Both the position numbers and the translations under genes were made by a program. DNA of 64,000 nt, taken from contig CM074863.1 in assembly GCA_037501455.1 (NCBI GenBank), forward strand, positions 61,175,501 through 61,239,500. Direction: 5' to 3'. Positions 3,319 to 50,974 of the stretch are shown here, one piece after another. Within the stretch, counting starts at the first letter, position 1; each line of letters starts with the position of its first letter. Source of the stretch: Lantana camara (Eukaryota; Streptophyta; Magnoliopsida; Lamiales; Verbenaceae). The notes under the pieces were generated by a model. That model worked only from the letters and a program-made list of their open reading frames with translations. It ran no database searches and was not told the DNA's origin.

Positions 3319-3323
3319 ACGTA

Positions 3324-5842: not shown

Positions 5843-6415
5843 CTTCGTCATCATCAGCTGTTGCATCGTACTCGTCATCATCCGTCCGATCAGGCATAAA
5901 TTTTCCCTTGCCTTGCGTTTGATTGTCGCGAGCACTTGTTGCAAGGTACCTAGCACCTGCTTCTGGGATTGTTTGATCTCTTTAATTTCATCCTTCACTT
6001 CTTTAATCTCACTGTCTTCCCGTGGGAAAACTTGACTTGGGCGATAAGATGACGACCCTGCACTAGAAGCCACCGTCGGAGAGGTCTTTGCCAAATGATT
6101 CAATCCAGTGACCCTCAATTTCTTGTTTGGACCCCCTTGTGCCTGAGACAATAACATAAAATCATTCAATTGAACGTAACGTGGATCCTTAAGCACCAGT
6201 CACGCCTCCTCCGCACGGGCTTTCTGGTACCTCAACTATTTATGAAAATTCATAACAACATATGAATTATATATCAAAAATTGCTTATGTAGAAGTTACA
6301 ACGAAAACTATACAACGAACCTCGTATTGAATACACTCATCTTCAGTGTGCATTTCTGAGATTAACTTCTCTCTATCGTCGACCTTCACAAATGTGTAGC
6401 GGTAAACGCTCCCCG
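5843..6415 (-). pseudogene. 3' exons of second CACTA gene (Transposase_24/En-Spm-associated protein), separated from the rest by the LARD array
   Basis: Two reverse-strand exons are visible. The first, 6415-6321, is the downstream half of an exon cut by the retrotransposon array; it ends at a GT donor (6320-6319). The second, 6235-5843, starts after a TAG acceptor. It encodes a conserved segment (KDPRYVQLNDF, LLSQAQGG) and an acidic/lysine-rich coiled-coil-like stretch (EIKEVKDEIKEIKQ), then a GT donor at 5842-5841. An in-frame TGA at 6202-6200 interrupts it where I would expect a tryptophan. The layout resembles the C-terminal half of plant Ptta/En-Spm transposase-associated proteins. The rest of the gene lies 26 kb away at 32898-35800. 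Confidence 0.7.
6411..6415. repeat. target-site duplication CCCCG of the LARD array (right copy 32898-32902)
   Basis: Identical pentanucleotides abut the first base of LTR 1 and the last base of LTR 4. Seven LTR/internal segments in a row therefore share a single insertion footprint. Confidence 0.9.
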
Positions 6416-8283
6416 TGTAACGCCCCAGTTTTTCAGTTTAAAATAATGTGACGTATTTGTTTATAAATTGCGCGATTTAGTTATTTAATTATATGGTTAA
6501 TTGTTTATAAATGTTTATATTTGATTCAAACTATAAACTATTTCTATTTTAATTTAATTCATTTTATTTTACTTTGATATTTAGTGTTTAATTTCTTAAT
6601 TGAGGTTTCACGTTACCTTAACTGTTTCGGTAATTTCTTTAATTAATTACAACATGTTATTAGTTTGTTTAATTTATTTAATATGGAATTTAAGTTTAGT
6701 AATTTATTCATAACTATATGAATTCGTTCATGCGCATGAGTGTTCTATTTGTGCTTCGTTCATATATGTAATGATATCGGATTGGTATGGAAATTTAGTA
6801 TGTCGTAAATATGTGTGTTATGAACATGTCTCTATGCTCAGTTTATGTTTTCGGATTCATTTGACGTGTTTACGAATTTATTTTGATTTTTGGAACCAAG
6901 TCGGGGGCTAACGAGAAATTAGCGCACCCTTGGTTCCGTGCGTGATATCTTGAGCTCGGGAATTCGGATTCGAATTCCGACACCTCTGTTGCCTTCGTAT
7001 CGACGATTCGGAGACAATGGAACAAGCCTCATACCTTTTTGAAATCATTAAGACCTCCGAAATCCAACCGTAACGGACAACTCGTGCAAGAAGAGCTCCT
7101 TTTGTTGACTAGTCTTCATGGTGGGACCCCATTACACCCCTTAACCTAACCATACCTTAACCATGACTTATCCACCTTGAGTTAAGCCCCTTTCTCTTCC
7201 CTTTTGCTCTGAAAACCGAACCACACATCTCCATTTTCAGCTGGAACTGATCGAGAGAAAGAGAGAGGAGAAAGGAAGAGAAAAACCTTGGCCCTTTGTG
7301 ATTTTGAGCTCAAATCACCATCTTCCTTCACCAAAACTTCAAGGTATGAATATTTATGTCTTCTCTACTCAATTATGCTTGATTTCATCTATTTAAAACA
7401 TGATTTGGATCAGATTTGATTAGGGTTTGAATTATGAGATTGGTATGAACTTTTAGGGGTTTTTGCTCTTGTGACCTATATGTTTGTGTGGCTGAATTTC
7501 TTGCTTATATGTGATCATATGAACTTGTTTCTTGGCTTATTTCTTTCCTAACTGATAGTATAGGATGTTAGGAGGATTTCATCTCTTGACCCTTTTATGA
7601 AATTATGAGATTTGGAGCTCCAAACTTGATGTTCAAACTGTTTCCCCTGTTTTCGAACTGCTGTGTGAAATATGGTGTTGTTGCTTGATCAAATGGTCTC
7701 CATTTCGGGTGAAATTGCATGGATCTTATGTACACTCATTGTTCTATATGTTAGCATTCATGTTTCAAGTTTTTGGATCCATTTTAAGCCTCAAAACCGC
7801 AAGACATGGCCTGTTCTTATGCATGATCTTTGACAGAATTGTTGCTGTTGTGTTTGGTAACTTGTTGGTCATTCTAATGTGCTTTAAATTGTACCATTTT
7901 GCATATATATGATTTATATTAGTTGTTTGGTATGTTAGAATGCATTCCCCAAAGTTTCAGATCCAAATTTAAGCCCTAAGTACTTGATCAAGGCATGATA
8001 GAATCATTAGGGCTCATATGTCCGATTGTAGCGACCCAGTTTTGTTTCACGGTTTCGATGATCTTAACGTGTGATTTAGCTTTTGCACTCTAAATGAAAA
8101 ATGTTCATAACATGCCAAATATGTTGCATATTAAGTTTCAGAGCATTTGGAGTTCATTTGGTATGCCTTTGGATTGAGTTTGTTTGAGTTCAGTTTTGCC
8201 GGTTAGGTCTTGCATGCGCCTCAAATTCTGTACCGTGACACCCCCGTGTCTCATTTACTCATAAGAGGGAGACACGGGCGTGT

Positions 8284-8288
8284 CACAC
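8284..8288. repeat. target-site duplication CACAC (right copy 9044-9048)
   Basis: The other three LTRs have the empty site, a single CACAC followed by CTTCTGGG, so both boundaries of the insertion are exact. Confidence 0.9.
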
Positions 8289-9043
8289 TGATGTGAATCA
8301 TGATGAACCGCGGCCATATCTTGTCCCAAATGAAGAGCTGGACCGATCCACAACTCAAGGAGATAGCATACAAAAGGAACAAAGTTATGGTGGTCCAATT
8401 ACAAGAGCTCGGGCCAAAATTATCCAAGAGGAAGTTGGAAATCTCTTAAACCAATTTGCTCAAACTGGACTCCAACCTTCAAGATGGGCTGCTGAACCAA
8501 ATTCAGAATACTTCAATGTTTTTATGTCCAATTTCTGAAGTCCAAAGTGTGGAAATGATGTAATTTGGCCCTAAGCCTATTATAGTATTATTTGGGCCTT
8601 TATTTTATCATTATTTAGCTGCATATTAGTTTATTTAAGCCCACTTTTGTAAGCCTTCATGGCAAGTGGCGGGAATAGCTTGTGGCCTTTAGTATTCTAG
8701 TGTCTCTTAGGTTTCCATGCATGCATCTTTATATTCAGCATTGTAACTTGTTTTTCTTTCAATCAAGAAGTAAAATTATTGAATTTTCATTCAAGTGAGA
8801 TTTTTCTCTCAAGTTCTTTGCTGAACGACATTAGGGTTTCAAACCCCTTTCCCGGATAACGTTATTTCTCGACTCCTTATAGTCGACGGGGTGCGTTACT
8901 TACAATCTGATAGTGTTGGTTCTTTGCTCAATATAGCAAACGGGTCACACTCCTCTTATTTTCAACCTTGAATTGGACGATCAGATTCAAGAACTCCAAG
9001 TATTGATATAGGGTTTCACGGCAAGTACGTGGAGTTCGTATCA
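8289..9043 (+). mobile_element. solo LTR (755 bp) carrying a retroelement polyprotein tail
   Basis: Starts TGATGTGAATCATG, ends GTTCGTATCA, with 5-bp duplication CACAC. It is absent from LTRs 2-4. Its first 250 bases stay open and encode a tail with GGPITRARAKIIQEE, a motif I associate with the C-terminal end of plant gypsy gag-pol polyproteins. In the parent element the coding region thus apparently ran into the 3' LTR (inference). A related copy (817 bp) is at 45896-46712. A TATATTCAGC-to-leader stretch near 8730 may be its promoter. Confidence 0.85.
8293..8538 (+). pseudogene. polyprotein C-terminal tail inside solo LTR
   Basis: An 81-codon frame beginning MNHDEPRPYLVPNEE. The recognisable part is YGGPITRARAKIIQEEVGNL. 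No protease, RT or integrase precedes it here, so it is only the LTR-embedded end of a lost polyprotein. The same tail, diverged, is in the element at 45896 (near 46010-46075: GPITRSRSKRMQEEVQSLL). I treat it as a relic, not a gene. Confidence 0.55.
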
Positions 9044-10066
9044 CACACCTTCTGGGCAGTTCTGTACTGAGCCACGCCCGTGGCTCAGTTGGGCTAGGGT
9101 TGGTGACACCCCCGTGTCACTTCCCATGCGCAGTCTTCGTTACTTCCTCTTCGGTTTTTGATTTGTTTCCCCTCCTTAATGATTTTATCTCCTTTCGTGT
9201 TGAACTATGAACTTGTTTGGCTAGGTGTTAGGAGTATTATGGTGCAATTTCATGATATTTGGATGAGGTTTAAAGTATGCTTTTAGTGAATTGCTATGAC
9301 GTGGCTTGAATACTTCTATATGAAATATTAAGTACATTCTTGCATTCTTTTGATGTCTTAAGTGATGTTCTTGGCCTTTTTGTGTATCATACTCAATGTA
9401 AACATGTTTGAAGGTATAATATGATTATGGTTCTAAGATTTTGTAAGATATTGCTAAGAATTATGAAGGATATGAAATAAATGAGTATGATACCTTCATT
9501 TCTTGAAAGTATTTGAATGAATGGCTTGTTATATGCCTTAATCGCATTAATAGTGCACATGAACGTTTTTATGATATAACATGATCATATATGCATTCAT
9601 TCATATTCACTTCATTGCCGTGCGTCATATATGGTTCATTGAAGTCTCGAGTCTCACGAACACGTCTTGTGGTCTTTTGTACAGTTTATCTCCAGGGTGG
9701 AGAGCTTTTGATTGTTCAGGCACTTGGTGCTCGATCCTTGTTTCATCACGGTTCAGGTGAGGGTGGTTTTTGTTTTAGCTATGTAACAAACCCTACAACC
9801 CTTATGTGAAAAGCTTTGGCCAAAACCTTATGACTATACATATATGATTTTCAAATGAAGTTATCGAGTAAATCCTTCTGAATTATGCGTATGAGCGTAT
9901 AACTTAAAAATGGTTTTGTAATGAGGCTATGCTCCAAACCGTGTGTCTTCATGCTAGCTACGGAATAGGATGACACGGAGAGGTACGTATATAGCATATG
10001 CCGAATTACACGGTAAGGTATGATTTCTTATAGTATGTATTGATCGAGTAAACCCTTTTCAAAAGA

Positions 10067-10155
10067 TTTATGAATTATGATATGTACTTATGAATTATGA
10101 TATGTATTTATGAATTATGTTATGTACTTATGAATTATGTTATGTACTTATGAAT
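10067..10155 (+). repeat. 20-bp tandem repeat, copy number variable among LTRs
   Basis: Four copies of TTATGAATTATGNTATGTAY in LTR 1 and LTR 3 (24481-24572), three in LTR 2 (17285-17355) and LTR 4 (31699-31770). This accounts for the 20-bp length difference between LTRs. Confidence 0.85.
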
Positions 10156-11291
10156 TGAAATGTTTTGGCGAGTCACATTTCTGATTTATGACTTCTGATT
10201 TAACGGGCCCCGGGACTTAGTATATGTGGCTAACCGAGGAAGCAAGGGCTGACGGGGATCCCATATACTAGTCCCAACCAACTACGGTGATACCGGCCCT
10301 CGCTAGGAGGTTTAGCGGGGAATGGGAGCTGAGTGCCTTTGGGGAATTCATGTACCCCCATTGGCCCATGTATAAACCGGTGGCCGGGTCTTGCAAGCCC
10401 GTCCACCACCTGGAGGAAGAAGGTTGGTTAGGATTTATGCCTCTTCTTATGTATATGTTTTGATAGAATTATGCACCGTGCGGGAAAGCCGGAACACGGA
10501 TTGCCCAAACGCTATGATTTATGATATATGGTCTGCATGTATTATGATATATTGCATGAACACCTAATCAACATATTATTGATATTTGTCGTACACGGTC
10601 GGAGTTCGGTTGGAGATTGTGCACGCTCACTCGCCGAGCCTTATAATTATGTATGATTTATGAAGGGAATGAATTTAATATGAATTAGTCGTAAAAGTCG
10701 AGCATTGTCTATCTATTTTCTTGTCCCTTTCGGGAACTAAATTCAAATAAAACCTTGCTCGGGATTTATGACTTGCATGTGCATGTTCTATATATTTATG
10801 TATCGCTCCTGCTCACTCAGTCTTCTAGAGACTGACCCTCTCCCTCCCCAACACTTTAGTGTGCAGGTTTGGCTTTGGAATTTCGGGCTAGGCGGAGATG
10901 TTTGGAGTCTTTAAGTGGTCGAGTTAAGTTAGGAGAGTCCCTGCACTCGTTTATGTATTGGAATTATGTATGATTCGTTCTTTTATATCATGAACTTGTA
11001 TAATTATGTAACTATTATTGAAACGTTGTTGCTGAGTTTTGCTATTGAATTAAAAGAGGCCTGAAGAGCCCAAATTCTGCTTATGGTTGGTATACTTGAA
11101 CTTTGGTTTTGCTATGCATCGTACTTTGGTTGTTATTGCAGGGTCTAGCTCCGCCTGGCTTAGGAAGGTTTTTATGTTTGTCTCCTGTTCGCTATGGTTT
11201 GATATGGGTGCGGATTAGCTGTTTCGTTACTCGTGTTGAGCCATAGTGCGGGGGATGTGGTGCCTCACGTGCGGGGTGCTACATCCTTAAG

Positions 11292-11303
11292 TGGTATCAG
11301 AGC
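11292..11303 (+). other. primer-binding site (initiator tRNA-Met)
   Basis: TGGTATCAGAGC, complementary to the 3' end of plant initiator tRNA-Met, eight bases after the LTR end. Copies lie at 18490-18501 and 25708-25719. Confidence 0.92.
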
Positions 11304-14187
11304 CCGGTTGCAAAACCGGTGTTCTAGTGTCGTGTGTGAGACAGTCTAGGTCGTACGGCTTAGGGACTATATGACAATGTGTGCATTGCATTGATCTTGA
11401 ACATGAATTTGGCTTTCCTTTTTGAATTTCGTTGGACTATCTGTTGCATTTACATAAGGATCCTTGCAATAATTGTTGAAAATGTGTCATGAGCATGCAC
11501 TAATCGCATGCATCCATTCTTGAAATGAGTTATGATTTCCAGCTTATAAAGATGATATCAAACCACGGCCAAGTTCTAGGACAAAGAAGATTGATTGCAA
11601 ACCTTTTTGAGACATGGAAGATGGGTAGGATACTTTGGGAAGATTGAATCTAGAGATGCGATGGCAGGGAGACATTTGGTGAAATCGGAATAGGAGTTAA
11701 TCATGGGATTGTTGAGATTCAAAAGACTAACTTATGAGAATCGGCTACTTGGAGTGCATTAATTGGATTCAACAGGATCTTTCAACCTAAGGAATGAATT
11801 AAACAAAGCCTTGAAGACATTTTGGTCTCGGATTTGGATCATGGAATAGGTACTAGTCATTAAGAGGAGTAGAGACAACAGGGGTCCGGTAGAGGTTATG
11901 CATCAAGGTTCTACAAAGAAGGACTTCGAACTAAGCCTAGTGATTAGAAGTCGGGTTTTAGAAGGCAAGCATTGGGTAAACACAAATAGAGGGAAGGTGG
12001 TGATATTGAGAACAGGATTTGAGTTCATTTTTCCAAATCCAAGCTGAATTGTCATGCTGTGAGGTTAAATTGGAAGATATGGAGCAACAAATGGAAACGG
12101 GAAAGAAAGGAAACCATGCGCTCAAGTATAAGCAATTGGAGGTGAATTAAATTCACAAAAGATAAGCGCGGAATTCTTGATCGAGGTGACGATTAGAAGT
12201 AAAGGTCGAATTTCGAGGAGAAGTTTGGATACTAACTCTGTGGACGTGGAAGAATTAAGGATTAAGAAATTGCAATCTCGGATAGTGGAAGATACAAGTG
12301 ATGCAAAAGAGACTCATGGAAAACTTGAAGACCGTGGGAAAGGCAAGGGATAATCACCGAGTCAAAGTAACCTCGGGATTTGAGGAACGAGGAAAAGCTA
12401 CCGAGCTAACTACTTACCATCTTGGTGACAGGTTCCAAAACATTCATAGCACGTGCATCATATTTTGCATTAATTATTTATTCTTTTGACCTTATGTTAT
12501 CCTTGCATTTCTAATTGGTTTCGTTGCGCTAATGTATTGTATAATTGCTTGATGTAAACGTGACTCATGCATTGTCATTTTAACCCAACATGCATTTTAG
12601 TGTTTACTTGATAGGAAGTCTTTTCGCCTTAACTATCAAGTATCAATTCAACCGAGCCGCATCTGAGTTATGAGGAAGAGAAATAATAGGATGACATTAG
12701 AAGGAAGGTGAATTTGGGAAATAAGAACTTCTAGTAAAGGATAGGTTAACGGAAACAAGAATTCAGAAGGAGAAGTGAGACTAGAGTTCCGGACAAAATT
12801 AAGAAAGGAGTTTCGGATATCAAGAGAACTAGGGAAGGAGTTGAAAGGTCAAATCCTTGATTTCTATATCAGTTAAACTTCACCTAATGGGATTTACTCA
12901 TCAAGAACTTCGATAAAAGAAGAATCAATAGAGTTCAACCGGGAGAGCAAATTTTAAGGGGGAGAGCACGACCGAGAGAGAAAATGGAAGATGGAAGTAA
13001 TGCTCGAATAAATATGTCAATAGCAACAACGGGGATGCAAGTTAAGGAGAATCCGGAAATCCTAATGGTGGCCATTGGAAATGAATAAGAGGACGGTAAT
13101 GGTTAAGTTGTTAAGAGAGAAGTGACGATGCCAAATTCGGGGAAAGACTTTTCGAGATATGAAGAAGAAAGTTTACTGAACGACTCTATGCCTGGAATTC
13201 CGAATTGGGAGTGATGAAATTATATGGGAGTTTCTGTGACCTCCTAAGATGGAATTAACTAAAGGAAAATTTGGATCAATCTATTATATGAGGGGATGTT
13301 GTCGACCAAGATTTATTTAGTAGAAGTATTAAGGGATCCGAGACAACATTATTAAGTTATCGGTTCTATCAAAGGTGATCCGGAAGGAAATCCACGCAGA
13401 AACCAAACCGGAAAAGATGATCATTGGAAGACTTACATCAAACTTCAAAACGCATCAGGAACGTTTTATCTTCGATTCAAGAAATGTGGAGCTAGATGCC
13501 AAATATAACCTTAAGGGGTCAAAGAGTATGAATAGGTAACATGAACGGAAAAGGGAAAAGGATTCGTGTTAAGGTAGATCCTAATGACGAATACCCCAAG
13601 GTAGGGATTGAATCGTCAAGGTTGTCAGGAGTAGTTATCCTTGAGGGTATTCTAAACTCCGATATGGGTAAGCTAGTAGCTATGGACCTAACTTCGAGGC
13701 GGGTGGTCCAAGGGTATTCGGGAAGTCAAATTCGGTTAATTCAAAAGAGTTGGTTGGGCGAATGAGGATTGAGGGAAATGGTGAAGACTGGAAACAGTAC
13801 AAGTCGGAACGGATCTAAGAATATGATCCTTAAAAGGATTCATCAATCGCTTCACCGGAGAACCCTGAAGAGGTTCAAGACAAGCTGGGCACTGAACTAC
13901 ATTCAGGACAGAGCATACCTTGGACAACGACAATTCACAACTTAAATTTTTGCAACTACGGTGAACGGTACTTATAGCATTCATGATACATGCATCCATG
14001 CAAATTTAACCTACGTAATTTCTATGCTAGGTGTTTTAATCTTGTATGGTGGCAAATTACTTGGAGCATTTGAAAATCAATGTGGGCGACACTTACTACT
14101 TGCGTTGGGTGCCTTAAGTGATTTTAAATTTGGTTTTTGCGTGAGTTGCTTGGGAGTATTGGAGACTTCCTTGCTTTATTTTCGGTT

Positions 14188-14348
14188 AAGAGACGGGGAT
14201 TCTCTTATTTTTGTTTGAGAGACGGGGTACTCTCTTTGTTTGCGAGAGACGGGGTTCTCTCATTGTTGTTGGAGAGACGGGGTTCTCTCATTGTTGCTCG
14301 AGAGACGGGGCTCTCTCCTTGTTGTTTGTGAGAGATGGGGAATCTCTC
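14188..14348 (+). repeat. six-unit hairpin array GAGAGAC-GGGG-(N)TCTCTC
   Basis: Six units start at 14188, 14217, 14244, 14272, 14300 and 14330, a spacing of 27-30 bp. Each is an inverted repeat around a GGGG centre, for example GAGAGACGGGGTTCTCTC. The array ends 47 bp before the polypurine tract. Copies are at 21386-21546 and 28604-28764 in the other internal regions. Confidence 0.9.
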
Positions 14349-14395
14349 ATTGTTTGTTTTCAAGCGTGCTTTGAATCCGAGGACGGATTCTTTTT

Positions 14396-14407
14396 AAGGG
14401 GGAGAGA
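14396..14407 (+). other. polypurine tract of LARD unit 1
   Basis: AAGGGGGAGAGA, one base from the start of LTR 2 at 14409. This is the expected plus-strand priming site. Repeated before LTR 3 and LTR 4. Confidence 0.85.
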
Positions 14408-14408
14408 T

Positions 14409-17400
14409 TGTAACGCCCCAGTTTTTCAGTTTAAAATAATGTGACGTATTTGTTTATAAATTTTAATTATATGGTTAATTGTTTATAAATGTTTATATTT
14501 GATTCAAACTATAAACTATTTCTATTTTAATTTAATTCATTTTATTTTACTTTGATATTTAGTGTTTAATTTCTTAATTGAGGTTTCACGTTACCTTAAC
14601 TGTTTCGGTAATTTCTTTAATTAATTACAACATGTTATTAGTTTGTTTAATTTATTTAATATGGAATTTAAGTTTAGTAATTTATTCATAACTATATGAA
14701 TTCGTTCATGCGCATGAGTGTTCTATTTGTGCTTCGTTCATATATGTAATGATATCGGATTGGTATGGAAATTTAGTATGTCGTAAATATGTGTGTTATG
14801 AACATGTCTCTATGCTCGGTTTATGTTTTCGGATTCATTTGACGTGTTTACGAATTTATTTTGATTTTTGGAACCAAGTCGGGGGCTAACGAGAAATTAG
14901 CGCACCCTTGGTTCCGTGCGTGATATCTTGAGCTCGGGAATTCGGATTCGAATTCCGACACCTCTGTTGCCTTCGTATCGACGATTCGGAGACAATGGAA
15001 CAAGCCTCATACCTTTTTGAAATCATTAAGACCTCCGAAATCCAACCGTAACGGACAACTCGTGCAAGAAGAGCTCCTTTTGTTGACTAGTCTTCATGGT
15101 GGGACCCCATTACACCCCTTAACCTAACCATACCTTAACCATGACTTATCCACCTTGAGTTAAGCCCCTTTCTCTTCCCTTTTGCTCTGAAAACCGAACC
15201 ACACATCTCCATTTTCAGCTGGAACTGATCGAGAGAAAGAGAGAGGAGAAAGGAAGAGAAAAACCTTGGCCCTTTGTGATTTTGAGCTCAAATCACCATC
15301 TTCCTTCACCAAAACTTCAAGGTATGAATATTTATGTCTTCTCTACTCAATTATGCTTGATTTCATCTATTTAAAACATGATTTGGATCAGATTTGATTA
15401 GGGTTTGAATTATGAGATTGGTATGAACTTTTAGGGGTTTTTGCTCTTGTGACCTATATGTTTGTGTGGCTGAATTTCTTGCTTATATGTGATCATATGA
15501 ACTTGTTTCTTGGCTTATTTCTTTCCTAACTGATAGTATAGGATGTTAGGAGGATTTCATCTCTTGACCCTTTTATGAAATTATGAGATTTGGAGCTCCA
15601 AACTTGATGTTCAAACTGTTTCCCCTGTTTTCGAACTGCTGTGTGAAATATGGTGTTGTTGCTTGATCAAATGGTCTCCATTTCGGGTGAAATTGCATGG
15701 ATCTTATGTACACTCATTGTTCTATATGTTAGCATTCATGTTTCAAGTTTTTGGATCCATTTTAAGCCTCAAAACCGCAAGACATGGCCTGTTCTTATGC
15801 ATGATCTTTGACAGAATTGTTGCTGTTGTGTTTGGTAACTTGTTGGTCATTCTAATGTGCTTTAAATTGTACCATTTTGCATATATATGATGTATATTAG
15901 TTGTTTGGTATGTTAGCATGCATTCCCCAAAGTTTCAGATCCAAATTTAAGCCCTAAGTACTTGATCAAGGCATGATAGAATCATTAGGGCTCATATGTC
16001 CGATTGTAGCGACCCAGTTTTGTTTCACGGTTTCGATGATCTTAACGTGTGATTTAGCTTTTGCACTCTAAATGAAAAATGTTCATAACATGCCAAATAT
16101 GTTGCATATTAAGTTTCAGAGCATTTGGAGTTCATTTGGTATGCCTTTGGATTGAGTTTGTTTGAGTTCAGTTTTGCCGGTTAGGTCTTGCATGCGCCTC
16201 AAATTCTGTACCGTGACACCCCCGTGTCTCATTTACTCATAAGAGGGAGACACGGGCGTGTCACACCTTCTGGGCAGTTCTGTACTGAGCCACGCCCGTG
16301 GCTCAGTTGGGCTAGGGTTGGTGACACCCCCGTGTCACTTCCCATGCGCAGTCTTCGTTACTTCCTCTTCGGTTTTTGATTTGTTTCCCCTCCTTAATGA
16401 TTTTATCTCCTTTCGTGTTGAACTATGAACTTGTTTGGCTAGGTGTTAGGAGTATTATGGTGCAATTTCATGATATTTGGATGAGGTTTAAAGTATGCTT
16501 TTAGTGAATTGCTATGACGTGGCTTGAATACTTCTATATGAAATATTAAGTACATTCTTGCATTCTTTTGATGTCTTAAGTGATGTTCTTGGCCTTTTTG
16601 TGTATCATACTCAATGTAAACATGTTTGAAGGTATAATATGATTATGGTTCTAAGATTTTGTAAGATATTGCTAAGAATTATGAAGGATATGAAATAAAT
16701 GAGTATGATACCTTCATTTCTTGAAAGTATTTGAATGAATGGCTTGTTATATGCCTTAATCGCATTAATAGTGCACATGAACGTTTTTATGATATAACAT
16801 GATCATATATGCATTCATTCATATTCACTTCATTGCCGTGCGTCATATATGGTTCATTGAAGTCTCGAGTCTCACGAACACGTCTTGTGGTCTTTTGTAC
16901 AGTTTATCTCCAGGGTGGAGAGCTTTTGATTGTTCAGGCACTTGGTGCTCGATCCTTGTTTCATCACGGTTCAGGTGAGGGTGGTTTTTGTTTTAGCTAT
17001 GTAACAAACCCTACAACCCTTATGTGAAAAGCTTTGGCCAAAACCTTATGACTATACATATATGATTTTCAAATGAAGTCATCGAGTAAATCCTTCTGAA
17101 TTATGCGTATGAGCGTATAACTTAAAAATGGTTTTGTAATGAGGCTATGCTCCAAACCATGTGTCTTCATGCTAGCTACGGAATAGGATGACACGGAGAG
17201 GTACGTATATAGCATATGCCGAATTACACGGTAAGGTATGATTTCTTATAGTATGTATTGATCGAGTAAACCCTTTTCAAAAGATTTATGAATTATGATA
17301 TGTACTTATGAATTATGATATGTATTTATGAATTATGTTATGTACTTATGAATTGAAATGTTTTGGCGAGTCACATTTCTGATTTATGACTTCTGATTTA

Positions 17401-21400: not shown

Positions 21401-21606
21401 TCTTATTTTTGTTTGAGAGACGGGGTACTCTCTTTGTTTGCGAGAGACGGGGTTCTCTCATTGTTGTTGGAGAGACGGGGTTCTCTCATTGTTGCTCGAG
21501 AGACGGGGCTCTCTCCTTGTTGTTTGTGAGAGACGGGGAATCTCTCATTGTTTGTTTTCAAGCGTGCTTTGAATCCGAGGACGGATTCTTTTTAAGGGGG
21601 AGAGAT
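18482..21606 (+). mobile_element. LARD internal region 2 (3125 bp, non-coding)
   Basis: Same length and content as internal region 1: primer site 18490-18501, hairpin array 21386-21546, polypurine tract just before 21607. Private variants include GAAGATTTACATC near 20630 and AAAATGGAAAAGG near 20747. No coding motif. Confidence 0.9.
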
Positions 21607-24600
21607 TGTAACGCCCCAGTTTTTCAGTTTAAAATAATGTGACGTATTTGTTTATAAATTTTAATTATATGGTTAATTGTTTATAAATGTTTATATTTGA
21701 TTCAAACTATAAACTATTTCTATTTTAATTTAATTCATTTTATTTTACTTTGATATTTAGTGTTTAATTTCTTAATTGAGGTTTCACGTTACCTTAACTG
21801 TTTCGGTAATTTCTTTAATTAATTACAACATGTTATTAGTTTGTTTAATTTATTTAATATGGAATTTAAGTTTAGTAATTTATTCATAACTATATGAATT
21901 CGTTCATGCGCATGAGTGTTCTATTTGTGCTTCGTTCATATATGTAATGATATCGGATTGGTATGGAAATTTAGTATGTCGTAAATATGTGTGTTATGAA
22001 CATGTCTCTATGCTCGGTTTATGTTTTCGGATTCATTTGACGTGTTTACGAATTTATTTTGATTTTTGGAACCAAGTCGGGGGCTAACGAGAAATTAGCG
22101 CACCCTTGGTTCCGTGCGTGATATCTTGAGCTCGGGAATTCGGATTCGAATTCCGACACCTCCGTTGCCTTCGTATCGACGATTCGGAGACAATGGAACA
22201 AGCCTCATACCTTTTTGAAATCATTAAGACCTCCGAAATCCAACCGTAACGGACAACTCGTGCAAGAAGAGCTCCTTTTGTTGACTAGTCTTCATGGTGG
22301 GACCCCATTACACCCCTTAACCTAACCATACCTTAACCATGACTTATCCACCTTGAGTTAAGCCCCTTTCTCTTCCCTTTTGCTCTGAAAACCGAACCAC
22401 ACATCTCCATTTTCAGCTGGAACTGATCGAGAGAAAGAGAGAGGAGAAAGGAAGAGAAAAACCTTGGCCCTTTGTGATTTTGAGCTCAAATCACCATCTT
22501 CCTTCACCAAAACTTCAAGGTATGAATATTTATGTCTTCTCTACTCAATTATGCTTGATTTCATCTATTTAAAACATGATTTGGATCAGATTTGATTAGG
22601 GTTTGAATTATGAGATTGGTATGAACTTTTAGGGGTTTTTGCTCTTGTGACCTATATGTTTGTGTGGCTGAATTTCTTGCTTATATGTGATCATATGAAC
22701 TTGTTTCTTGGCTTATTTATTTCCTAACTGATAGTATAGGATGTTAGGAGGATTTCATCTCTTGACCCTTTTATGAAATTATGAGATTTGGAGCTCCAAA
22801 CTTGATGTTCAAACTGTTTCCCCTGTTTTCGAACTGCTGTGTGAAATATGGTGTTGTTGCTTGATCAAATGGTCTCCATTTCGGGTGAAATTGCATGGAT
22901 CTTATGTACACTCATTGTTCTATATGTTAGCATTCATGTTTCAAGTTTTTGGATCCATTTTAAGCCTCAAAACCGCAAGACATGGCCTGTTCTTATGCAT
23001 GATCTTTGACAGAATTGTTGCTGTTGTGTTTGGTAACTTGTTGGTCATTCTAATGTGCTTTAAATTGTACCATTTTGCATATATATGATGTATATTAGTT
23101 GTTTGGTATGTTAGCATGCATTCCCCAAAGTTTCAGATCCAAATTTAAGCCCTAAGTACTTGATCAAGGCATGATAGAATCATTAGGGCTCATATGTCCG
23201 ATTGTAGCGACCCAGTTTTGTTTCACGGTTTCGATGATCTTAACGTGTGATTTAGCTTTTGCACTCTAAATGAAAAATGTTCATAACATGCCAAATATGT
23301 TGCATATTAAGTTTCAGAGCATTTGGAGTTCATTTGGTATGCCTTTGGATTGAGTTTGTTTGAGTTCAGTTTTGCCGGTTAGGTCTTGCATGCGCCTCAA
23401 ATTCTGTACCGTGACACCCCCGTGTCTCATTTACTCATAAGAGGGAGACACGGGCGTGTCACACCTTCTGGGCAGTTCTGTACTGAGCCACGCCCGTGGC
23501 TCAGTTGGGCTAGGGTTGGTGACACCCCCGTGTCACTTCCCATGCGCAGTCTTCGTTACTTCCTCTTCGGTTTTTGATTTGTTTCCCCTCCTTAATGATT
23601 TTATCTCCTTTCGTGTTGAACTATGAACTTGTTTGGCTAGGTGTTAGGAGTATTATGGTGCAATTTCATGATATTTGGATGAGGTTTAAAGTATGCTTTT
23701 AGTGAATTGCTATGACGTGGCTTGAATACTTCTATATGAAATATTAAGTACATTCTTGCATTCTTTTGATGTCTTAAGTGATGTTCTTGGCCTTTTTGTG
23801 TATCATACTCAATGTAAACATGTTTGAAGGTATAATATGATTATGGTTCTAAGATTTTGTAAGATATTGCTAAGAATTATGAAGGATATGAAATAAATGA
23901 GTATGATACCTTCATTTCTTGAAAGTATTTGAATGAATGGCTTGTTATATGCCTTAATCGCATTAATAGTGCACATGAACGTTTTTATGATATAACATGA
24001 TCATATATGCATTCATTCATATTCACTTCATTGCCGTGCGTCATATATGGTTCATTGAAGTCTCGAGTCTCACGAACACGTCTTGTGGTCTTTTGTACAG
24101 TTTATCTCCAGGGTGGAGAGCTTTTGATTGTTCAGGCACTTGGTGCTCGATCCTTGTTTCATCACGGTTCAGGTGAGGGTGGTTTTTGTTTTAGCTATGT
24201 AACAAACCCTACAACCCTTATGTGAAAAGCTTTGGCCAAAACCTTATGACTATACATATATGATTTTCAAATGAAGTTATCGAGTAAATCCTTCTGAATT
24301 ATGCGTATGAGCGTATAACTTAAAAATGGTTTTGTAATGAGGCTATGCTCCAAACCGTGTGTCTTCATGCTAGCTACGGAATAGGATGACACGGAGAGGT
24401 ACGTATATAGCATATGCCGAATTACACGGTAAGGTATGATTTCTTATAGTATGTATTGATCGAGTAAACCCTTTTCAAAAGATTTATGAATTATGATATG
24501 TACTTATGAATTATGATATGTATTTATGAATTATGTTATGTACTTATGAATTATGTTATGTACTTATGAATTGAAATGTTTTGGCGAGTCACATTTCTGA

Positions 24601-25699
24601 TTTATGACTTCTGATTTAACGGGCCCCGGGACTTAGTATATGTGGCTAACCGAGGAAGCAAGGGCTGACGGGGATCCCATATACTAGTCCCAACCAACTA
24701 CGGTGATACCGGCCCTCGCTAGGAGGTTTAGCGGGGAATGGGAGCTGAGTGCCTTTGGGGAATTCATGTACCCCCATTGGCCCATGTATAAACCGGTGGC
24801 CGGGTCTTGCAAGCCCGTCCACCACCTGGAGGAAGAAGGTTGGTTAGGATTTATGCCTCTTCTTATGTATATGTTTTGATAGAATTATGCACCGTGCGGG
24901 AAAGCCGGAACACGGATTGCCCAAACGCTATGATTTATGATATATGGTCTGCATGTATTATGATATATTGCATGAACACCTAATCAACATATTATTGATA
25001 TTTGTCGTACACGGTCGGAGTTCGGTTGGAGATTGTGCACGCTCACTCGCCGAGCCTTATAATTATGTATGATTTATGAAGGGAATGAATTTAATATGAA
25101 TTAGTCGTAAAAGTCGAGCATTGTCTATCTATTTTCTTGTCCCTTTCGGGAACTAAATTCAAATAAAACCTTGCTCGGGATTTATGACTTGCATGTGCAT
25201 GTTCTATATATTTATGTATCGCTCCTGCTCACTCAGTCTTCTAGAGACTGACCCTCTCCCTCCCCAACACTTTAGTGTGCAGGTTTGGCTTTGGAATTTC
25301 GGGCTAGGCGGAGATGTTTGGAGTCTTTAAGTGGTCGAGTTAAGTTAGGAGAGTCCCTGCACTCGTTTATGTATTGGAATTATGTATGATTCGTTCTTTT
25401 ATATCATGAACTTGTATAATTATGTAACTATTATTGAAACGTTGTTGCTGAGTTTTGCTATTGAATTAAAAGAGGCCTGAAGAGCCCAAATTCTGCTTAT
25501 GGTTGGTATACTTGAACTTTGGTTTTGCTATGCATCGTACTTTGGTTGTTATTGCAGGGTCTAGCTCCGCCTGGCTTAGGAAGGTTTTTATGTTTGTCTC
25601 CCGTTCGCTATGGTTTGATATGGGTGCGGATTAGCTGTTTCGTTACTCGTGTTGAGCCATAGTGCGGGGGATGTGGTGCCTCACGTGCGGGGTGCTACA
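21607..25699 (+). mobile_element. LARD array LTR 3 (4093 bp)
   Basis: TGTAACGCCCC...GGTGCTACA. It carries the first-half variants CACCTCCGTTGCC and CTTATTTATTTCC, shared only with LTR 4, but four copies of the 20-bp repeat in its second half, shared with LTR 1. This mosaic is best explained by recombination within the array. Confidence 0.93.
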
Positions 25700-28600
25700 T
25701 CCTTAAGTGGTATCAGAGCCCGGTTGCAAAACCGGTGTTCTAGTGTCGTGTGTGAGACAGTCTAGGTCGTACGGCTTAGGGACTATATGACAATGTGTGC
25801 ATTGCATTGATCTTGAACATGAATTTGGCTTTCCTTTTTGAATTTCGTTGGACTATCTGTTGCATTTACATAAGGATCCTTGCAATAATTGTTGAAAATG
25901 TGTCATGAGCATGCACTAATCTCATGCATCCATTCTTGAAATGAGTTATGATTTCCAGCTTATAAAGATGATATCAAACCACGGCCAAGTTCTAGGACAA
26001 AGAAGATTGATTGCAAACCTTTTTGAGACATGGAAGATGGGTAGGATACTTTGGGAAGATTGAATCTAGAGATGCGATGGCAGGGAGACATTTGGTGAAA
26101 TCGGAATAGGAGTTAATCATGGGATTGTTGAGATTCAAAAGACTAACTTATGAGAATCGGCTACTTGGAGTGCATTAATTGGATTCAACAGGATCTTTCA
26201 ACCTAAGGAATGAATTAAACAAAGCCTTGAAGACATTTTGGTCTCGGATTTGGATCATGGAATAGGTACTAGTCATTAAGAGGAGTAGAGACAACAGGGG
26301 TCCGGTAGAGGTTATGCATCAAGGTTCTACAAAGAAGGACTTCGAACTAAGCCTAGTGATTAGAAGTCGGGTTTTAGAAGGCAAGCATTGGGTAAACACA
26401 AATAGAGGGAAGGTGGTGATATTGAGAACAGGATTTGAGTTCATTTTTCCAAATCCAAGCTGAATTGTCATGCTGTGAGGTTAAATTGGAAGATATGGAG
26501 CAACAAATGGAAACGGGAAAGAAAGGAAACCATGCGCTCAAGTATAAGCAATTGGAGGTGAATTAAATTCACAAAAGATAAGCGCGGAATTCTTGATCGA
26601 GGTGACGATTAGAAGTAAAGGTCGAATTTCGAGGAGAAGTTTGGATACTAACTCTGTGGACGTGGAAGAATTAAGGATTAAGAAATTGCAATCTCGGATA
26701 GTGGAAGATACAAGTGATGCAAAAGAGACTCATGGAAAACTTGAAGACCGTGGGAAAGGCAAGGGATAATCACCGAGTCAAAGTAACCTCGGGATTTGAG
26801 GAACGAGGAAAAGCTACCGAGCTAACTACTTACCATCTTGGTGACAGGTTCCAAAACATTCATAGCACGTGCATCATATTTTGCATTGATTATTTATTCT
26901 TTTGACCTTATGTTATCCTTGCATTTCTAATTGGTTTCGTTGCGCTAATGTATTGTATAATTGCTTGATGTAAACGTGACTCATGCATTGTCATTTTAAC
27001 CCAACATGCATTTTAGTGTTTACTTGATAGGAAGTCTTTTCGCCTCAACTATCAAGTATCAATTCAACCGAGCCGCATCTGAGTTATGAGGAAGAGAAAT
27101 AATAGGATGACATTAGAAGGAAGGTGAATTTGGGAAATAAGAACTTCTAGTAAAGGATAGGTTAACGGAAACAAGAATTCAGAAGGAGAAGTGAGACTAG
27201 AGTTCCGGACAAAATTAAGAAAGGAGTTTCGGATATCAAGAGAACTATGGAAGGAGTTGAAAGGTCAAATCCTTGATTTCTATATCAGTTAAACTTCACC
27301 TAATGGGATTTACTCATCAAGAACTTCGATAAAAGAAGAATCAATAGAGTTCAACCGGGAGAGCAAATTTTAAGGGGGAGAGCACGACCGAGAGAGAAAA
27401 TGGAAGATGGAAGTAATGCTCGAATAAATATGTCAATAGCAACAACGGGGATGCAAGTTAAGGAGAATCCGGAAATCCTAATGGTGGCCATTGGAAATGA
27501 ATAAGAGGACGGTAATGGTTAAGTTGTTAAGAGAGAAGTGACGATGCCAAATTCGGGGAAAGACTTTTCGAGATATGAAGAAGAAAGTTTACTGAACGAC
27601 TCTATGCCTGGAATTCCGAATTGGGAGTGATGAAATTATATGGGAGTTTCTGTGACCTCCTAAGATGGAATTAACTAAAGGAAAATTTGGATCAATCTAT
27701 TATATGAGGGGATGTTGTCGACCAAGATTTATTTAGTAGAAGTATTAAGGGATCCGAGACAACATTATTAAGTTATCGGTTCTATCAAAGGTGATCCGGA
27801 AGGAAATCCACGCAGAAACCAAACCGGAAAAGATGATCATTGGAAGACTTACATCAAACTTCAAAACGCATCAGGAACGTTTTATCTTCGATTCAAGAAA
27901 TGTGGAGCTAGATGCCAAATATAACCTTAAGGGGTCAAAGAGTATGAATAGGTAACATGAATGGAAAAGGGAAAAGGATTCGTGTTAAGGTAGATCCTAA
28001 TGACGAATACCCCAAGGTAGGGATTGAATCGTCAAGGTTGTCAGGAGTAGTTATCCTTGAGGGTATTCTAAACTCCGATATGGGTAAGCTAGTAGCTATG
28101 GACCTAACTTCGAGGCGGGTGGTCCAAGGGTATTCGGGAAGTCAAATTCGGTTAATTCAAAAGAGTTGGTTGGGCGAATGAGGATTGAGGGAAATGGTGA
28201 AGACTGGAAACAGTACAAGTCGGAACGGATCTAAGAATATGATCCTTACAAGGATTCATCAATCGCTTCACCGGAGAACCCTGAAGAGGTTCAAGACAAG
28301 CTGGGCACTGAACTACATTCAGGACAGAGCATACCTTGGACAACGACAATTCACAACTTAAATTTTTGCAACTACGGTGAACGGTACTTATAGCATTCAT
28401 GATACATGCATCCATGCAAATTTAACCTACGTAATTTCTATGCTAGGTGTTTTAATCTTGTATGGTGGCAAATTACTTGGAGCATTTGAAAATCAATGTG
28501 GGCGACACTTACTACTTGCGTTGGGTGCCTTAAGTGATTTTAAATTTGGTTTTTGCGTGAGTTGCTTGGGAGTATTGGAGACTTCCTTACTTTATTTTCG

Positions 28601-28824
28601 GTTAAGAGACGGGGATTCTCTTATTTTTGTTTGAGAGACGGGGTACTCTCTTTGTTTGCGAGAGACGGGGTTCTCTCATTGTTGTTGGAGAGACGGGGTT
28701 CTCTCATTGTTGCTCGAGAGACGGGGCTCTCTCCTTGTTGTTTGTGAGAGACGGGGAATCTCTCATTGTTTGTTTTCAAGCGTGCTTTGAATCCGAGGAC
28801 GGATTCTTTTTAAGGGGGAGAGAT
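25700..28824 (+). mobile_element. LARD internal region 3 (3125 bp, non-coding)
   Basis: Same layout as regions 1 and 2 (primer site 25708-25719, hairpin array 28604-28764). It has the most private variants, including AATCTCATGCATCC near 25920, GCATTGATTATTT near 26886, AGAACTATGGAAGG near 27243 and a C in TACAAGGATTC near 28250. Confidence 0.9.
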
Positions 28825-31800
28825 TGTAACGCCCCAGTTTTTCAGTTTAAAATAATGTGACGTATTTGTTTATAAATTTTAATTATATGGTTAATTGTTT
28901 ATAAATGTTTATATTTGATTCAAACTATAAACTATTTCTATTTTAATTTAATTCATTTTATTTTACTTTGATATTTAGTGTTTAATTTCTTAATTGAGGT
29001 TTCACGTTACCTTAACTGTTTCGGTAATTTCTTTAATTAATTACAACATGTTATTAGTTTGTTTAATTTATTTAATATGGAATTTAAGTTTAGTAATTTA
29101 TTCATAACTATATGAATTCGTTCATGCGCATGAGTGTTCTATTTGTGCTTCGTTCATATATGTAATGATATCGGATTGGTATGGAAATTTAGTATGTCGT
29201 AAATATGTGTGTTATGAACATGTCTCTATGCTCGGTTTATGTTTTCGGATTCATTTGACGTGTTTACGAATTTATTTTGATTTTTGGAACCAAGTCGGGG
29301 GCTAACGAGAAATTAGCGCACCCTTGGTTCCGTGCGTGATATCTTGAGCTCGGGAATTCGGATTCGAATTCCGACACCTCCGTTGCCTTCGTATCGACGA
29401 TTCGGAGACAATGGAACAAGCCTCATACCTTTTTGAAATCATTAAGACCTCCGAAATCCAACCGTAACGGACAACTCGTGCAAGAAGAGCTCCTTTTGTT
29501 GACTAGTCTTCATGGTGGGACCCCATTACACCCCTTAACCTAACCATACCTTAACCATGACTTATCCACCTTGAGTTAAGCCCCTTTCTCTTCCCTTTTG
29601 CTCTGAAAACCGAACCACACATCTCCATTTTCAGCTGGAACTGATCGAGAGAAAGAGAGAGGAGAAAGGAAGAGAAAAACCTTGGCCCTTTGTGATTTTG
29701 AGCTCAAATCACCATCTTCCTTCACCAAAACTTCAAGGTATGAATATTTATGTCTTCTCTACTCAATTATGCTTGATTTCATCTATTTAAAACATGATTT
29801 GGATCAGATTTGATTAGGGTTTGAATTATGAGATTGGTATGAACTTTTAGGGGTTTTTGCTCTTGTGACCTATATGTTTGTGTGGCTGAATTTCTTGCTT
29901 ATATGTGATCATATGAACTTGTTTCTTGGCTTATTTATTTCCTAACTGATAGTATAGGATGTTAGGAGGATTTCATCTCTTGACCCTTTTATGAAATTAT
30001 GAGATTTGGAGCTCCAAACTTGATGTTCAAACTGTTTCCCCTGTTTTCGAACTGCTGTGTGAAATATGGTGTTGTTGCTTGATCAAATGGTCTCCATTTC
30101 GGGTGAAATTGCATGGATCTTATGTACACTCATTGTTCTATATGTTAGCATTCATGTTTCAAGTTTTTGGATCCATTTTAAGCCTCAAAACCGCAAGACA
30201 TGGCCTGTTCTTATGCATGATCTTTGACAGAATTGTTGCTGTTGTGTTTGGTAACTTGTTGGTCATTCTAATGTGCTTTAAATTGTACCATTTTGCATAT
30301 ATATGATGTATATTAGTTTTTTGGTATGTTAGCATGCATTCCCCAAAGTTTCAGATCCAAATTTAAGCCCTAAGTACTTGATCAAGGCATGATAGAATCA
30401 TTAGGGCTCATATGTCCGATTGTAGCGACCCAGTTTTGTTTCACGGTTTCGATGATCTTAACGTGTGATTTAGCTTTTGAACTCTAAATGAAAAATGTTC
30501 ATAACATGCCAAATATGTTGCATATTAAGTTTCAGAGCATTTGGAGTTCATTTGGTATGCCTTTGGATTGAGTTTGTTTGAGTTCAGTTTTGCCGGTTAG
30601 GTCTTGCATGCGCCTCAAATTCTGTACCGTGACACCCCCGTGTCTCATTTACTCATAAGAGGGAGACACGGGCGTGTCACACCTTCTGGGCAGTTCTGTA
30701 CTGAGCCACGCCCGTGGCTCAGTTGGGCTAGGGTTGGTGACACCCCCGTGTCACTTCCCATGCGCAGTCTTCGTTACTTCCTCTTCGGTTTTTGATTTGT
30801 TTCCCCTCCTTAATGATTTTATCTCCTTTCGTGTTGAACTATGAACTTGTTTGGCTAGGTGTTAGGAGTATTATGGTGCAATTTCATGATATTTGGATGA
30901 GGTTTAAAGTATGCTTTTAGTGAATTGCTATGACGTGGCTTGAATACTTCTATATGAAATATTAAGTACATTCTTGCATTCTTTTGATGTCTTAAGTGAT
31001 GTTCTTGGCCTTTTTGTGTATCATACTCAATGTAAACATGTTTGAAGGTATAATATGATTATGGTTCTAAGATTTTGTAAGATATTGCTAAGAATTATGA
31101 AGGATATGAAATAAATGAGTATGATACCTTCATTTCTTGAAAGTATTTGAATGAATGGCTTGTTATATGCCTTAATCGCATTAATAGTGCACATGAACGT
31201 TTTTATGATATAACATGATCATATATGCATTCATTCATATTCACTTCATTGCCGTGCGTCATATATGGTTCATTGAAGTCTCGAGTCTCACGAACACGTC
31301 TTGTGGTCTTTTGTACAGTTTATCTCCAGGGTGGAGAGCTTTTGATTGTTCAGGCACTTGGTGCTCGATCCTTGTTTCATCACGGTTCAGGTGAGGGTGG
31401 TTTTTGTTTTAGCTATGTAACAAACCCTACAACCCTTATGTGAAAAGCTTTGGCCAAAACCTTATGACTATACATATATGATTTTCAAATGAAGTTATCG
31501 AGTAAATCCTTCTGAATTATGCGTATGAGCGTATAACTTAAAAATGGTTTTGTAATGAGGCTATGCTCCAAACCGTGTGTCTTCATGCTAGCTACGGAAT
31601 AGGATGACACGGAGAGGTACGTATATAGCATATGCCGAATTACACGGTAAGGTATGATTTCTTATAGTATGTATTGATCGAGTAAACCCTTTTCAAAAGA
31701 TTTATGAATTATGATATGTACTTATGAATTATGATATGTATTTATGAATTATGTTATGTACTTATGAATTGAAATGTTTTGGCGAGTCACATTTCTGATT

Positions 31801-32897
31801 TATGACTTCTGATTTAACGGGCCCCGGGACTTAGTATATGTGGCTAACCGAGGAAGCAAGGGCTGACGGGGATCCCATATACTAGTCCCAACCAACTACG
31901 GTGATACCGGCCCTCGCTAGGAGGTTTAGCGGGGAATGGGAGCTGAGTGCCTTTGGGGAATTCATGTACCCCCATTGGCCCATGTATAAACCGGTGGCCG
32001 GGTCTTGCAAGCCCGTCCACCACCTGGAGGAAGAAGGTTGGTTAGGATTTATGCCTCTTCTTATGTATATGTTTTGATAGAATTATGCACCGTGCGGGAA
32101 AGCCGGAACACGGATTGCCCAAACGCTATGATTTATGATATATGGTCTGCATGTATTATGATATATTGCATGAACACCTAATCAACATATTATTGATATT
32201 TGTCGTACACGGTCGGAGTTCGGTTGGAGATTGTGCACGCTCACTCGCCGAGCCTTATAATTATGTATGATTTATGAAGGGAATGAATTTAATATGAATT
32301 AGTCGTAAAAGTCGAGCATTGTCTATCTATTTTCTTGTCCCTTTCGGGAACTAAATTCAAATAAAACCTTGCTCGGGATTTATGACTTGCATGTGCATGT
32401 TCTATATATTTATGTATCGCTCCTGCTCACTCAGTCTTCTAGAGACTGACCCTCTCCCTCCCCAACACTTTAGTGTGCAGGTTTGGCTTTGGAATTTCGG
32501 GCTAGGCGGAGATGTTTGGAGTCTTTAAGTGGTCGAGTTAAGTTAGGAGAGTCCCTGCACTCGTTTATGTATTGGAATTATGTATGATTCGTTCTTTTAT
32601 ATCATGAACTTGTATAATTATGTAACTATTATTGAAACGTTGTTGCTGAGTTTTGCTATTGAATTAAAAGAGGCCTGAAGAGCCCAAATTCTGCTTATGG
32701 TTGGTATACTTGAACTTTGGTTTTGCTATGCATCGTACTTTGGTTGTTATTGCAGGGTCTAGCTCCGCCTGGCTTAGGAAGGTTTTTATGTTTGTCTCCC
32801 GTTCGCTATGGTTTGATATGGGTGCGGATTAGCTGTTTCGTTACTCGTGTTGAGCCATAGTGCGGGGGATGTGGTGCCTCACGTGCGGGGTGCTACA
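28825..32897 (+). mobile_element. LARD array LTR 4 (4073 bp)
   Basis: Ends GGGGTGCTACA at 32897, followed by the right CCCCG duplication (32898-32902). Private variants include TAGTTTTTTGGT near 30316 and GCTTTTGAACTC near 30478. Confidence 0.93.
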
Positions 32898-32930
32898 CCC
32901 CGTGTCCAGTTTTTGGCCCGTAGCAGCTTC
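32898..32930 (-). pseudogene. upstream half of the interrupted exon of the second CACTA gene
   Basis: On the reverse strand a CTGACAG acceptor precedes GAAGCTGCTACGG, and the frame then runs into the CCCCG duplication. The same frame continues at 6415 on the other side of the array, giving one exon of about 123 bp once one copy of the duplication is discounted. The phase is kept, which shows the retrotransposon landed in coding sequence. The joined product is not written out. Confidence 0.65.
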
Positions 32931-46712: not shown

Positions 46713-46871
46713 GATATGATATGAATATTCAATAAAATACATAGAATATAATTTTATAAAATTATGTCATGCTATGGAAAATTAAAGAAATGAGCAATTA
46801 ATAATTAAAATCTAACTCTCAAACGCACACGTGTCGATCATACCTGAATTGCCGAAAGCTGGGGCGTTACA

Positions 46872-46891
46872 ATCCTCCCTCCTTAAAAGAA
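46872..46891 (-). other. polypurine tract of reverse gypsy element
   Basis: On the reverse strand TTCTTTTAAGGAGGGAGGAT directly precedes the LTR start TGTAACGCC. An equal tract at 53463-53482 adjoins the other LTR. Confidence 0.8.
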
Positions 46892-50966: not shown

Positions 50967-50974
50967 CCGTAGGA

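What the first reader, a model, noticed from the sequence alone, without database searches (positions are those of the whole stretch)
6411..32902. Four-LTR, three-internal tandem retrotransposon array with one target duplication
LTR-int-LTR-int-LTR-int-LTR is continuous: internal regions are all 3125 bp, unit periods are 7198 and 7218 bp, and the only 5-bp duplication (CCCCG) is at the two outer ends. One insertion therefore grew in place, most simply by unequal crossing-over between LTRs. Copies differ by only a handful of private changes, so growth was recent.
Basis: seen in the sequence. Interest (0 to 1): 0.8.

Follow-up and report, generated by a model that had tools for sequence, protein, structure and literature searches.

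The report
Retrotransposon that multiplied in place
A plant jumping gene that landed once now sits as three copies in a row sharing four end repeats, and small sequence differences suggest that the extra copies arose by misaligned exchange after landing; arrays of this kind are already known in plants.

Summary
Window 6411-32902 is LTR-int-LTR-int-LTR-int-LTR: three 3125-bp internal regions and one 5-bp target duplication (CCCCG) at the outer ends. The unit is non-coding as far as tested, with ~4.1-kb LTRs, primer site and polypurine tract: a LARD-like element of a flowering plant.

Two of 12 LTR SNP sites split LTR1,2 from LTR3,4. The outer LTRs are not the closest pair. LTR3 looks like a chimera of LTR4's 5' part and LTR1's 3' part, as unequal crossing-over predicts. 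Two crossovers plus one recurrent 20-bp repeat change explain the LTR markers, in either of two orders; internal regions and LTR SNPs disagree on which. Conversion within a pre-formed concatemer is not excluded. Internal divergence is not below outer-LTR divergence, so growth is not shown to be later than insertion. Mis-assembly was untestable.

Tandem LTR retrotransposons of this anatomy are described in rice, Arabidopsis, almond and cotton (PMC11899658), mechanism left open. This is a new member of a known kind whose markers bear on that question.

The parts
6411..6415 (.). Left target-site duplication CCCCG
6416..11283 (+). LTR1 (4868 bp with insertion; TGTAACGCC...GTGCTACA)
6469..6483 (+). 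15 bp present in LTR1 only (placement may shift by a base)
   Evidence: coordinates derived from alignment columns
8284..8288 (.). Duplication CACAC left of the nested insertion (right copy 9044-9048)
8289..9043 (+). 755-bp solo-LTR-like insertion (TGATGTG...TCGTATCA) in LTR1 only; relative at 45896-46712
10068..10156 (+). 20-bp tandem repeat, 4.4 copies in LTR1 (LTR3 24484-24572 has 4.4; LTR2 17286-17354 and LTR4 31702-31770 have 3.5)
11284..14408 (+). int1, 3125 bp, no recognised protein; ends in a polypurine tract
11292..11303 (+). Primer binding site TGGTATCAGAGC (initiator-Met type, recalled); also 18490 and 25708
14409..18481 (+). LTR2, 4073 bp; 4 private SNPs
18482..21606 (+). int2, 3125 bp; 2 private SNPs
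21607..25699 (+). LTR3, 4093 bp; no private SNP; read as chimera of the LTR4-type 5' part and LTR1-type 3' part
25700..28824 (+). int3, 3125 bp; 6 private SNPs
28825..32897 (+). LTR4, 4073 bp; 2 private SNPs
32898..32902 (.). Right target-site duplication CCCCG

Best explanation
One non-autonomous (LARD-like) Ty3/gypsy-type element inserted once, giving LTR-int-LTR flanked by CCCCG. The two LTRs then picked up differences. A misaligned exchange between the 3' LTR of one copy and the 5' LTR of its sister chromatid or homologue gave LTR-int-LTR-int-LTR with a chimeric middle LTR (3'-LTR-type 5' part, 5'-LTR-type 3' part). A second such exchange added the third unit. One event made LTR3 (crossover after SNP 1128 and, if the 20-bp repeat is informative, before it), the other made LTR2 (crossover between the 15-bp site and SNP 572); which came first is unresolved. 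At some point LTR2 lost one 20-bp repeat unit, LTR1 received a solo-LTR-like insertion, and private SNPs built up. Shown: the anatomy, the single target duplication, the variant pattern. Inferred: the exchanges, crossing-over rather than conversion, and the presence of the array in the plant.
For: Single outer duplication and seamless inner junctions. 2 of 12 LTR SNP sites split LTR1,2 from LTR3,4. At site 572 both relatives in the window that align there as LTR carry the LTR3/4 state, so LTR1/2 share the derived state (two more rows of that alignment were pol sequence, showed C and A there, and were disregarded). LTR1 and LTR4 differ by 8 SNPs, a 15-bp and a 20-bp length difference and the insertion, while LTR3-LTR4 differ by 2 SNPs and the 20 bp. 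Taking LTR1 and LTR4 as parental types, the LTR states are reached in 2 unequal crossovers if the 20-bp repeat is set aside (4 paths, 2 orders). With it kept, 4 are needed for intermediates of at most 4 LTRs, and none is found within 3 for intermediates of up to 6. Setting aside any one of the other 3 markers gave no solution within 3 events. In a four-tip star with CpG- and CHG-weighted mutation, two sites with the same 2:2 partition arose in 0.0395% of 200,000 runs, and at least one 2:2 site in 5.1%.
Against: The model was fitted after seeing the pattern; only four LTR markers carry it, and one (20-bp repeat) needs a recurrent change. Site 572 is a CpG, prone to repeated mutation; the polarity of 1128 and of the 15 bp is unknown. 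One conversion tract would also give both 2:2 SNPs. The copies disagree on order: internal regions make units 1 and 2 the closest (4 differences versus 8 and 8), but LTR1-LTR2 differ by 8 SNPs, more than LTR1-LTR3 (6) or LTR3-LTR4 (2) (8 versus 2, p=0.11). int1-int3 divergence (8/3125) is not below outer-LTR divergence (8/4073). LTR3-LTR4 (2/4073) is lower than int3-int1 (8/3125; uncorrected p=0.025), so plain crossovers without later homogenisation fit poorly. Star-like internal divergence (2, 2, 6 private) is not rejected (p=0.20).
Confidence: 0.57

Rival explanations
1. The element integrated already as a concatemer (template switching in reverse transcription, or read-through transcription of a one-LTR circle), and later conversion between neighbouring LTRs spread a few SNPs.
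For: One target duplication fits equally well. Internal divergence is as high as outer-LTR divergence. Internal SNPs are all private (10 of 10) and a star is not rejected. PMC11899658 (section 13) leaves both routes open; PMC1950507 (part 1 of 2) proposes template switching.
Against: PMC1950507 expects outer LTRs to be alike because they come from one reverse transcription. Here LTR1-LTR4 is tied for the most divergent pair, and at 572, 1128 and the 20-bp repeat each outer state recurs in an inner LTR. It needs at least one extra conversion event.
Confidence: 0.25
2. Homologous recombination of one-LTR circular DNA of the same family into an LTR of a resident single element.
For: Gives the same anatomy with one target duplication (established retroelement biology; inference). 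int3 is the most divergent internal copy.
Against: int3 differs by only 8/3125 from its neighbours, so a foreign copy is not needed; no dispersed copies could be compared (genome search did not complete).
Confidence: 0.08
3. Assembly artefact: allelic or dispersed copies were strung together.
For: Aligned bases of the copies are at least 99.7% identical over units of 7.2 kb, a hard case for assembly; no reads were available.
Against: Each unit has its own variants in LTR or internal region, and the outer flanks carry a matching 5-bp duplication; assemblers more often collapse than expand repeats (general knowledge).
Confidence: 0.1

Closest known systems
Tandem LTR-RT structures of rice, Arabidopsis, almond and cotton (Morales-Diaz et al. 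2025, PMC11899658; abstract, results and discussion read)
   Same: Alternating LTR and internal regions, starting and ending in an LTR, inner LTRs shared, 5-bp duplication at the outer ends (perfect in 10 of its 28 curated rice tandems), mostly gypsy in rice.
   Different: Three units here against two in the two rice loci described in detail. All 28 curated rice tandems encode retrotransposon domains; this unit has none detected. Here shared LTR variants bear on the mechanism, which that paper could not resolve.
Complex LTR retrotransposon insertions by template switching (Sabot and Schulman 2007, PMC1950507; part 1 of 2 read)
   Same: Shared inner LTR, flanking duplication from one integration.
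   Different: Outer LTRs here are not the most similar pair.
LARD elements such as Sukkula (described in passages of PMC7215508; original paper recalled, not read)
   Same: Long LTRs (recalled), internal domain without protein coding.
   Different: No sequence relation to a named LARD was tested.
Tandem TRIM arrays: Cassandra (PMC7215508, passages) and maize Wukong (PMC4528315, search listing)
   Same: Head-to-tail non-autonomous LTR elements, unequal crossing-over proposed.
   Different: TRIMs have short LTRs and almost no internal domain; this unit is 7.2 kb.

Membership tests
Tandem LTR-retrotransposon | LTR and internal regions alternate, beginning and ending in an LTR | tested here: met
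Tandem LTR-retrotransposon | Perfect 5-bp duplication at the outer ends and none at inner junctions | tested here: met
Tandem LTR-retrotransposon | Present in the genome (spanning reads) | not testable with these tools
   no reads held
LARD | Long LTRs (about 4 kb) with primer site and polypurine tract | tested here: met
LARD | Internal region encodes no retrotransposon protein | tested here: met
   No ORF of 120 aa or more; longest stop-to-stop stretch 90 aa, below the mean of 109 in 200 single-base shuffles; four gag/pol ORFs of the neighbouring element gave no tblastn hit better than E=0.7; 9 of the 10 int1 fragments printed (30 of at least 45 aa exist) gave no Pfam match at cut-off, two had chance-level matches (E 0.1 and 0.065)
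LARD | Many dispersed, structurally uniform copies | not tested
   The genome search own did not complete five times
Template-switch complex element | Outer LTRs most alike | tested here: not met
   LTR1-4 8 SNPs, LTR3-4 2 SNPs
Ty3/gypsy (chromovirus, Tekay-like) | Own pol with chromodomain integrase | tested here: not met
   No pol found in the unit. Link is indirect: shared LTR start, polypurine tract, LTR end and primer-site region with the coding element at 43560-54180, whose chromodomain match (23.8 bits) is under Pfam's cut-off of 25.1

The most novel reading that the evidence does not exclude
The array keeps a readable record of stepwise in-place growth: inner LTRs are chimeras with crossover points in different places, which separates unequal crossing-over from pre-formed concatemer insertion, the point left open for plant tandem LTR-RTs. 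A damaged second tandem of a related coding family lies on the other strand in the same window, so this lineage or this region may be prone to such growth.
Probability: 0.33. Interest if true: 0.5.

Novelty: new member of a known kind. Interest (0 to 1): 0.35.

Why it matters
How tandem LTR retrotransposons form was left open in the 2025 survey (PMC11899658, discussion). With ~4.1-kb LTRs and a few shared variants, this array gives locus-specific predictions: 2- and 3-LTR alleles with named marker states should exist in relatives if it grew in place. It would also show that a non-coding element, which cannot move by itself, can gain copies through host recombination.

Tried and rejected
Nested insertion of separate elements: rejected, since no inner target duplications or split LTRs exist except the 755-bp insertion in LTR1. 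Recombination of two neighbouring insertions: disfavoured, since the outer flanks share one duplication (criterion from PMC1950507). Crossing-over alone without recurrent change: possible but needs 4 events. Order of the two crossovers: first written down as 'LTR3 first' from the internal regions; a later enumeration showed that both orders fit the LTR markers and the LTR SNP counts favour the other, so it is left open and confidence in the best explanation was lowered from 0.60 to 0.57 (novel reading 0.35 to 0.33, concatemer rival 0.22 to 0.25). Coding capacity of the internal region: none found. Using relatives in the window to polarise variants: worked for 572 (two relatives) and 425 (one), not for 1128 or the 15 bp. 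Species: one protein search with the neighbouring subtilase gave 426 matches, 120 listed; the best named ones are flowering plants (Dillenia 73% over 87% of the query, Salix), lower rows include conifers, a clubmoss and unnamed records; species not determined. Searching the genome for dispersed copies: not completed. Paper search gave 0 papers.

The star simulation used 15 mutation events; the 12 observed sites would need 14, so it is slightly generous to the rival. Ages at recalled rates of 1.3e-8 and 0.7e-8 run from 19 to 183 thousand years over all pairs and are indicative only.

Full report
Anatomy. Self-BLAST and exact end motifs show LTR1 6416-11283, int1 11284-14408, LTR2 14409-18481, int2 18482-21606, LTR3 21607-25699, int3 25700-28824 and LTR4 28825-32897, bounded by CCCCG at 6411-6415 and 32898-32902. 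LTRs run TGTAACGCC...GTGCTACA. Each internal region starts TCCTTAAG followed by TGGTATCAGAGC (an initiator-Met-type primer site; name recalled) and ends in AAGGGGGAGAGAT, directly followed by the next LTR. No target-like bases sit at the 6 inner junctions.

LTR1 holds a 755-bp insertion, 8289-9043, with CACAC on both sides; LTR2-4 show the empty site. It begins TG, ends CA, and a relative (blastn pieces of 74.6% and 92.2%) lies at 45896-46712 in an LTR of another element, flanked by GATAT. I read both as solo LTRs of another family (inference). LTR1 also has 15 bases that the other three lack.

Element type. The LTRs are about 4.1 kb and the internal region 3125 bp. No ORF of 120 aa or more lies in the array; the longest stop-free stretch of int1 is 90 aa, below the mean of 109 aa in 200 single-base shuffles. 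Four gag, protease-RT and integrase ORFs of the nearby coding element find nothing in int1 better than E=0.7. Nine of the ten int1 fragments printed (of 30 of at least 45 aa) were searched in Pfam: nothing at cut-off, two chance-level matches. The element is therefore LARD-like. It shares its LTR start, polypurine tract, LTR end and primer-site region with a Ty3/gypsy element on the other strand (43560-54180): a 141-column match at 85% over the LTR end and primer site, and 65% over the first 273 bases of int1. That element carries gag, RVP, RVT_1 and integrase matches and a chromodomain match below cut-off. Such a relative could have supplied the proteins in trans (inference).

Variants. Of 12 LTR SNP sites, 10 are private (LTR1 4, LTR2 4, LTR3 0, LTR4 2). 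Sites 572 and 1128 (alignment columns) are T,C in LTR1 and LTR2 and C,A in LTR3 and LTR4. A 20-bp repeat unit is present in LTR1 and LTR3 and absent in LTR2 and LTR4. Of 10 internal SNP sites all are private (int1 2, int2 2, int3 6). At 572 two diverged relatives in the window have C, so T in LTR1 and LTR2 is derived; two further rows of that alignment turned out to be pol sequence (C and A there) and were disregarded. Site 572 is a CpG, which makes repeated mutation more likely there; 1128 is a C/A difference outside CpG.

Mechanism. If LTR1 and LTR4 keep the parental 5' and 3' types, an unequal crossover makes an inner LTR with a 3'-LTR-type 5' part and a 5'-LTR-type 3' part. LTR3 has exactly this: no 15 bp, C572, A1128, then the long repeat. 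LTR2 fits another event with the crossover between the 15-bp site and 572, plus loss of one repeat unit. A search over crossovers gives a minimum of 2 with the repeat set aside and 4 with it kept (intermediates of at most 4 LTRs); setting aside any one of the other three markers gave no solution within 3 events. Allowing intermediates of up to 6 LTRs changes neither the 2-event paths nor the absence of a 3-event solution. The model was built after seeing the pattern.

Order of events. Four 2-event paths exist, in two orders: LTR3 made first or LTR2 made first. Internal regions favour copying of unit 1 last (int1-int2 4 differences, versus 8 and 8). LTR SNPs point the other way (LTR1-LTR2 8, LTR3-LTR4 2; p=0.11). 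I leave the order open.

Against a pre-formed concatemer. One reverse transcription makes both outer LTRs alike, which is the published criterion (PMC1950507, part 1 of 2 read). Here the outer pair is tied for the most divergent (8 SNPs), and three markers separate the outer LTRs while each state recurs in an inner LTR. Recurrent mutation on a star gives two sites with the same 2:2 partition in 0.0395% of 200,000 simulated cases, and at least one 2:2 site in 5.1%. A single conversion tract could still do it, so the concatemer is disfavoured, not excluded.

Against simple late growth. int1-int3 divergence (8/3125) is not smaller than that of the outer LTRs (8/4073; p=0.62), the internal star is not rejected (p=0.20), and LTR3-LTR4 is closer than int3-int1 would suggest (uncorrected p=0.025). 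The simplest reading is growth soon after insertion plus some LTR homogenisation (inference). 'Recent' is true for the whole locus, not for the growth in particular.

Known context. Morales-Diaz et al. 2025 (PMC11899658; abstract, results and discussion) describe this anatomy in rice, Arabidopsis, almond and cotton, argue for single insertions, and leave open whether tandems form during retrotransposition or by recombination afterwards. Tandem arrays of non-coding TRIM elements are also known (PMC7215508, passages; PMC4528315, search listing). The array is thus a new member of a known kind; its value is in the informative markers. Two paper searches aimed at this anatomy and its mechanism listed only PMC11899658 and, PMC12786077 (listing only).

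A second tandem remnant. On the minus strand, pol 3' end (54180-53463), LTR (53462-50975), internal region (50974-46872) and LTR (46871-43560) follow one another. The stretch upstream of the first LTR matches the 3' end of the main internal region (97.35% over 717 aligned bases) and is joined to the LTR by the same polypurine-tract junction; the two LTRs are 98.27% identical over 2488 aligned bases. It looks like a broken tandem of a related coding family (inference; no target duplication could be tested at its broken end).

Limits. No reads, no other accession and no dispersed copies could be examined; the genome search was unanswered five times. The host is a flowering plant judging by the best named relatives of its subtilase; the species is unknown.

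Noticed in passing
43560-54180 (minus strand): Related Ty3/gypsy element with gag-pol split over several ORFs, preceded by the 3' end of a second internal region joined to its 5' LTR at a polypurine tract: a probable truncated tandem LTR retrotransposon.
   Followed up: partly
45896-46712: 817-bp TG...CA insertion flanked by GATAT inside the 3' LTR of that element; relative of the insertion at 8289-9043.
   Followed up: partly
226-3487 (minus strand): Old, diverged relative of the array's LTR (about 62% in three long pieces) in the left flank.
   Followed up: partly
60155-64000: Another related LTR (pieces at 60155-60795 and 62607-62719) followed by a primer site at 62728; the element would run off the window.
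   Followed up: partly
14189-14354, 21387-21552, 28605-28770: 28-bp minisatellite (5.8 copies) shortly upstream of the polypurine tract in each internal region.
   Followed up: no
37312-38430 (minus strand): Transposase_21 (tnp2) fragment.
   Followed up: no
54577-56885 (+): Subtilisin-like protease gene spread over three ORFs, next to the truncated end of the second tandem.
   Followed up: no
58261-58332 (minus strand): tRNA match to Rfam RF00005 (42.1 bits).
   Followed up: no
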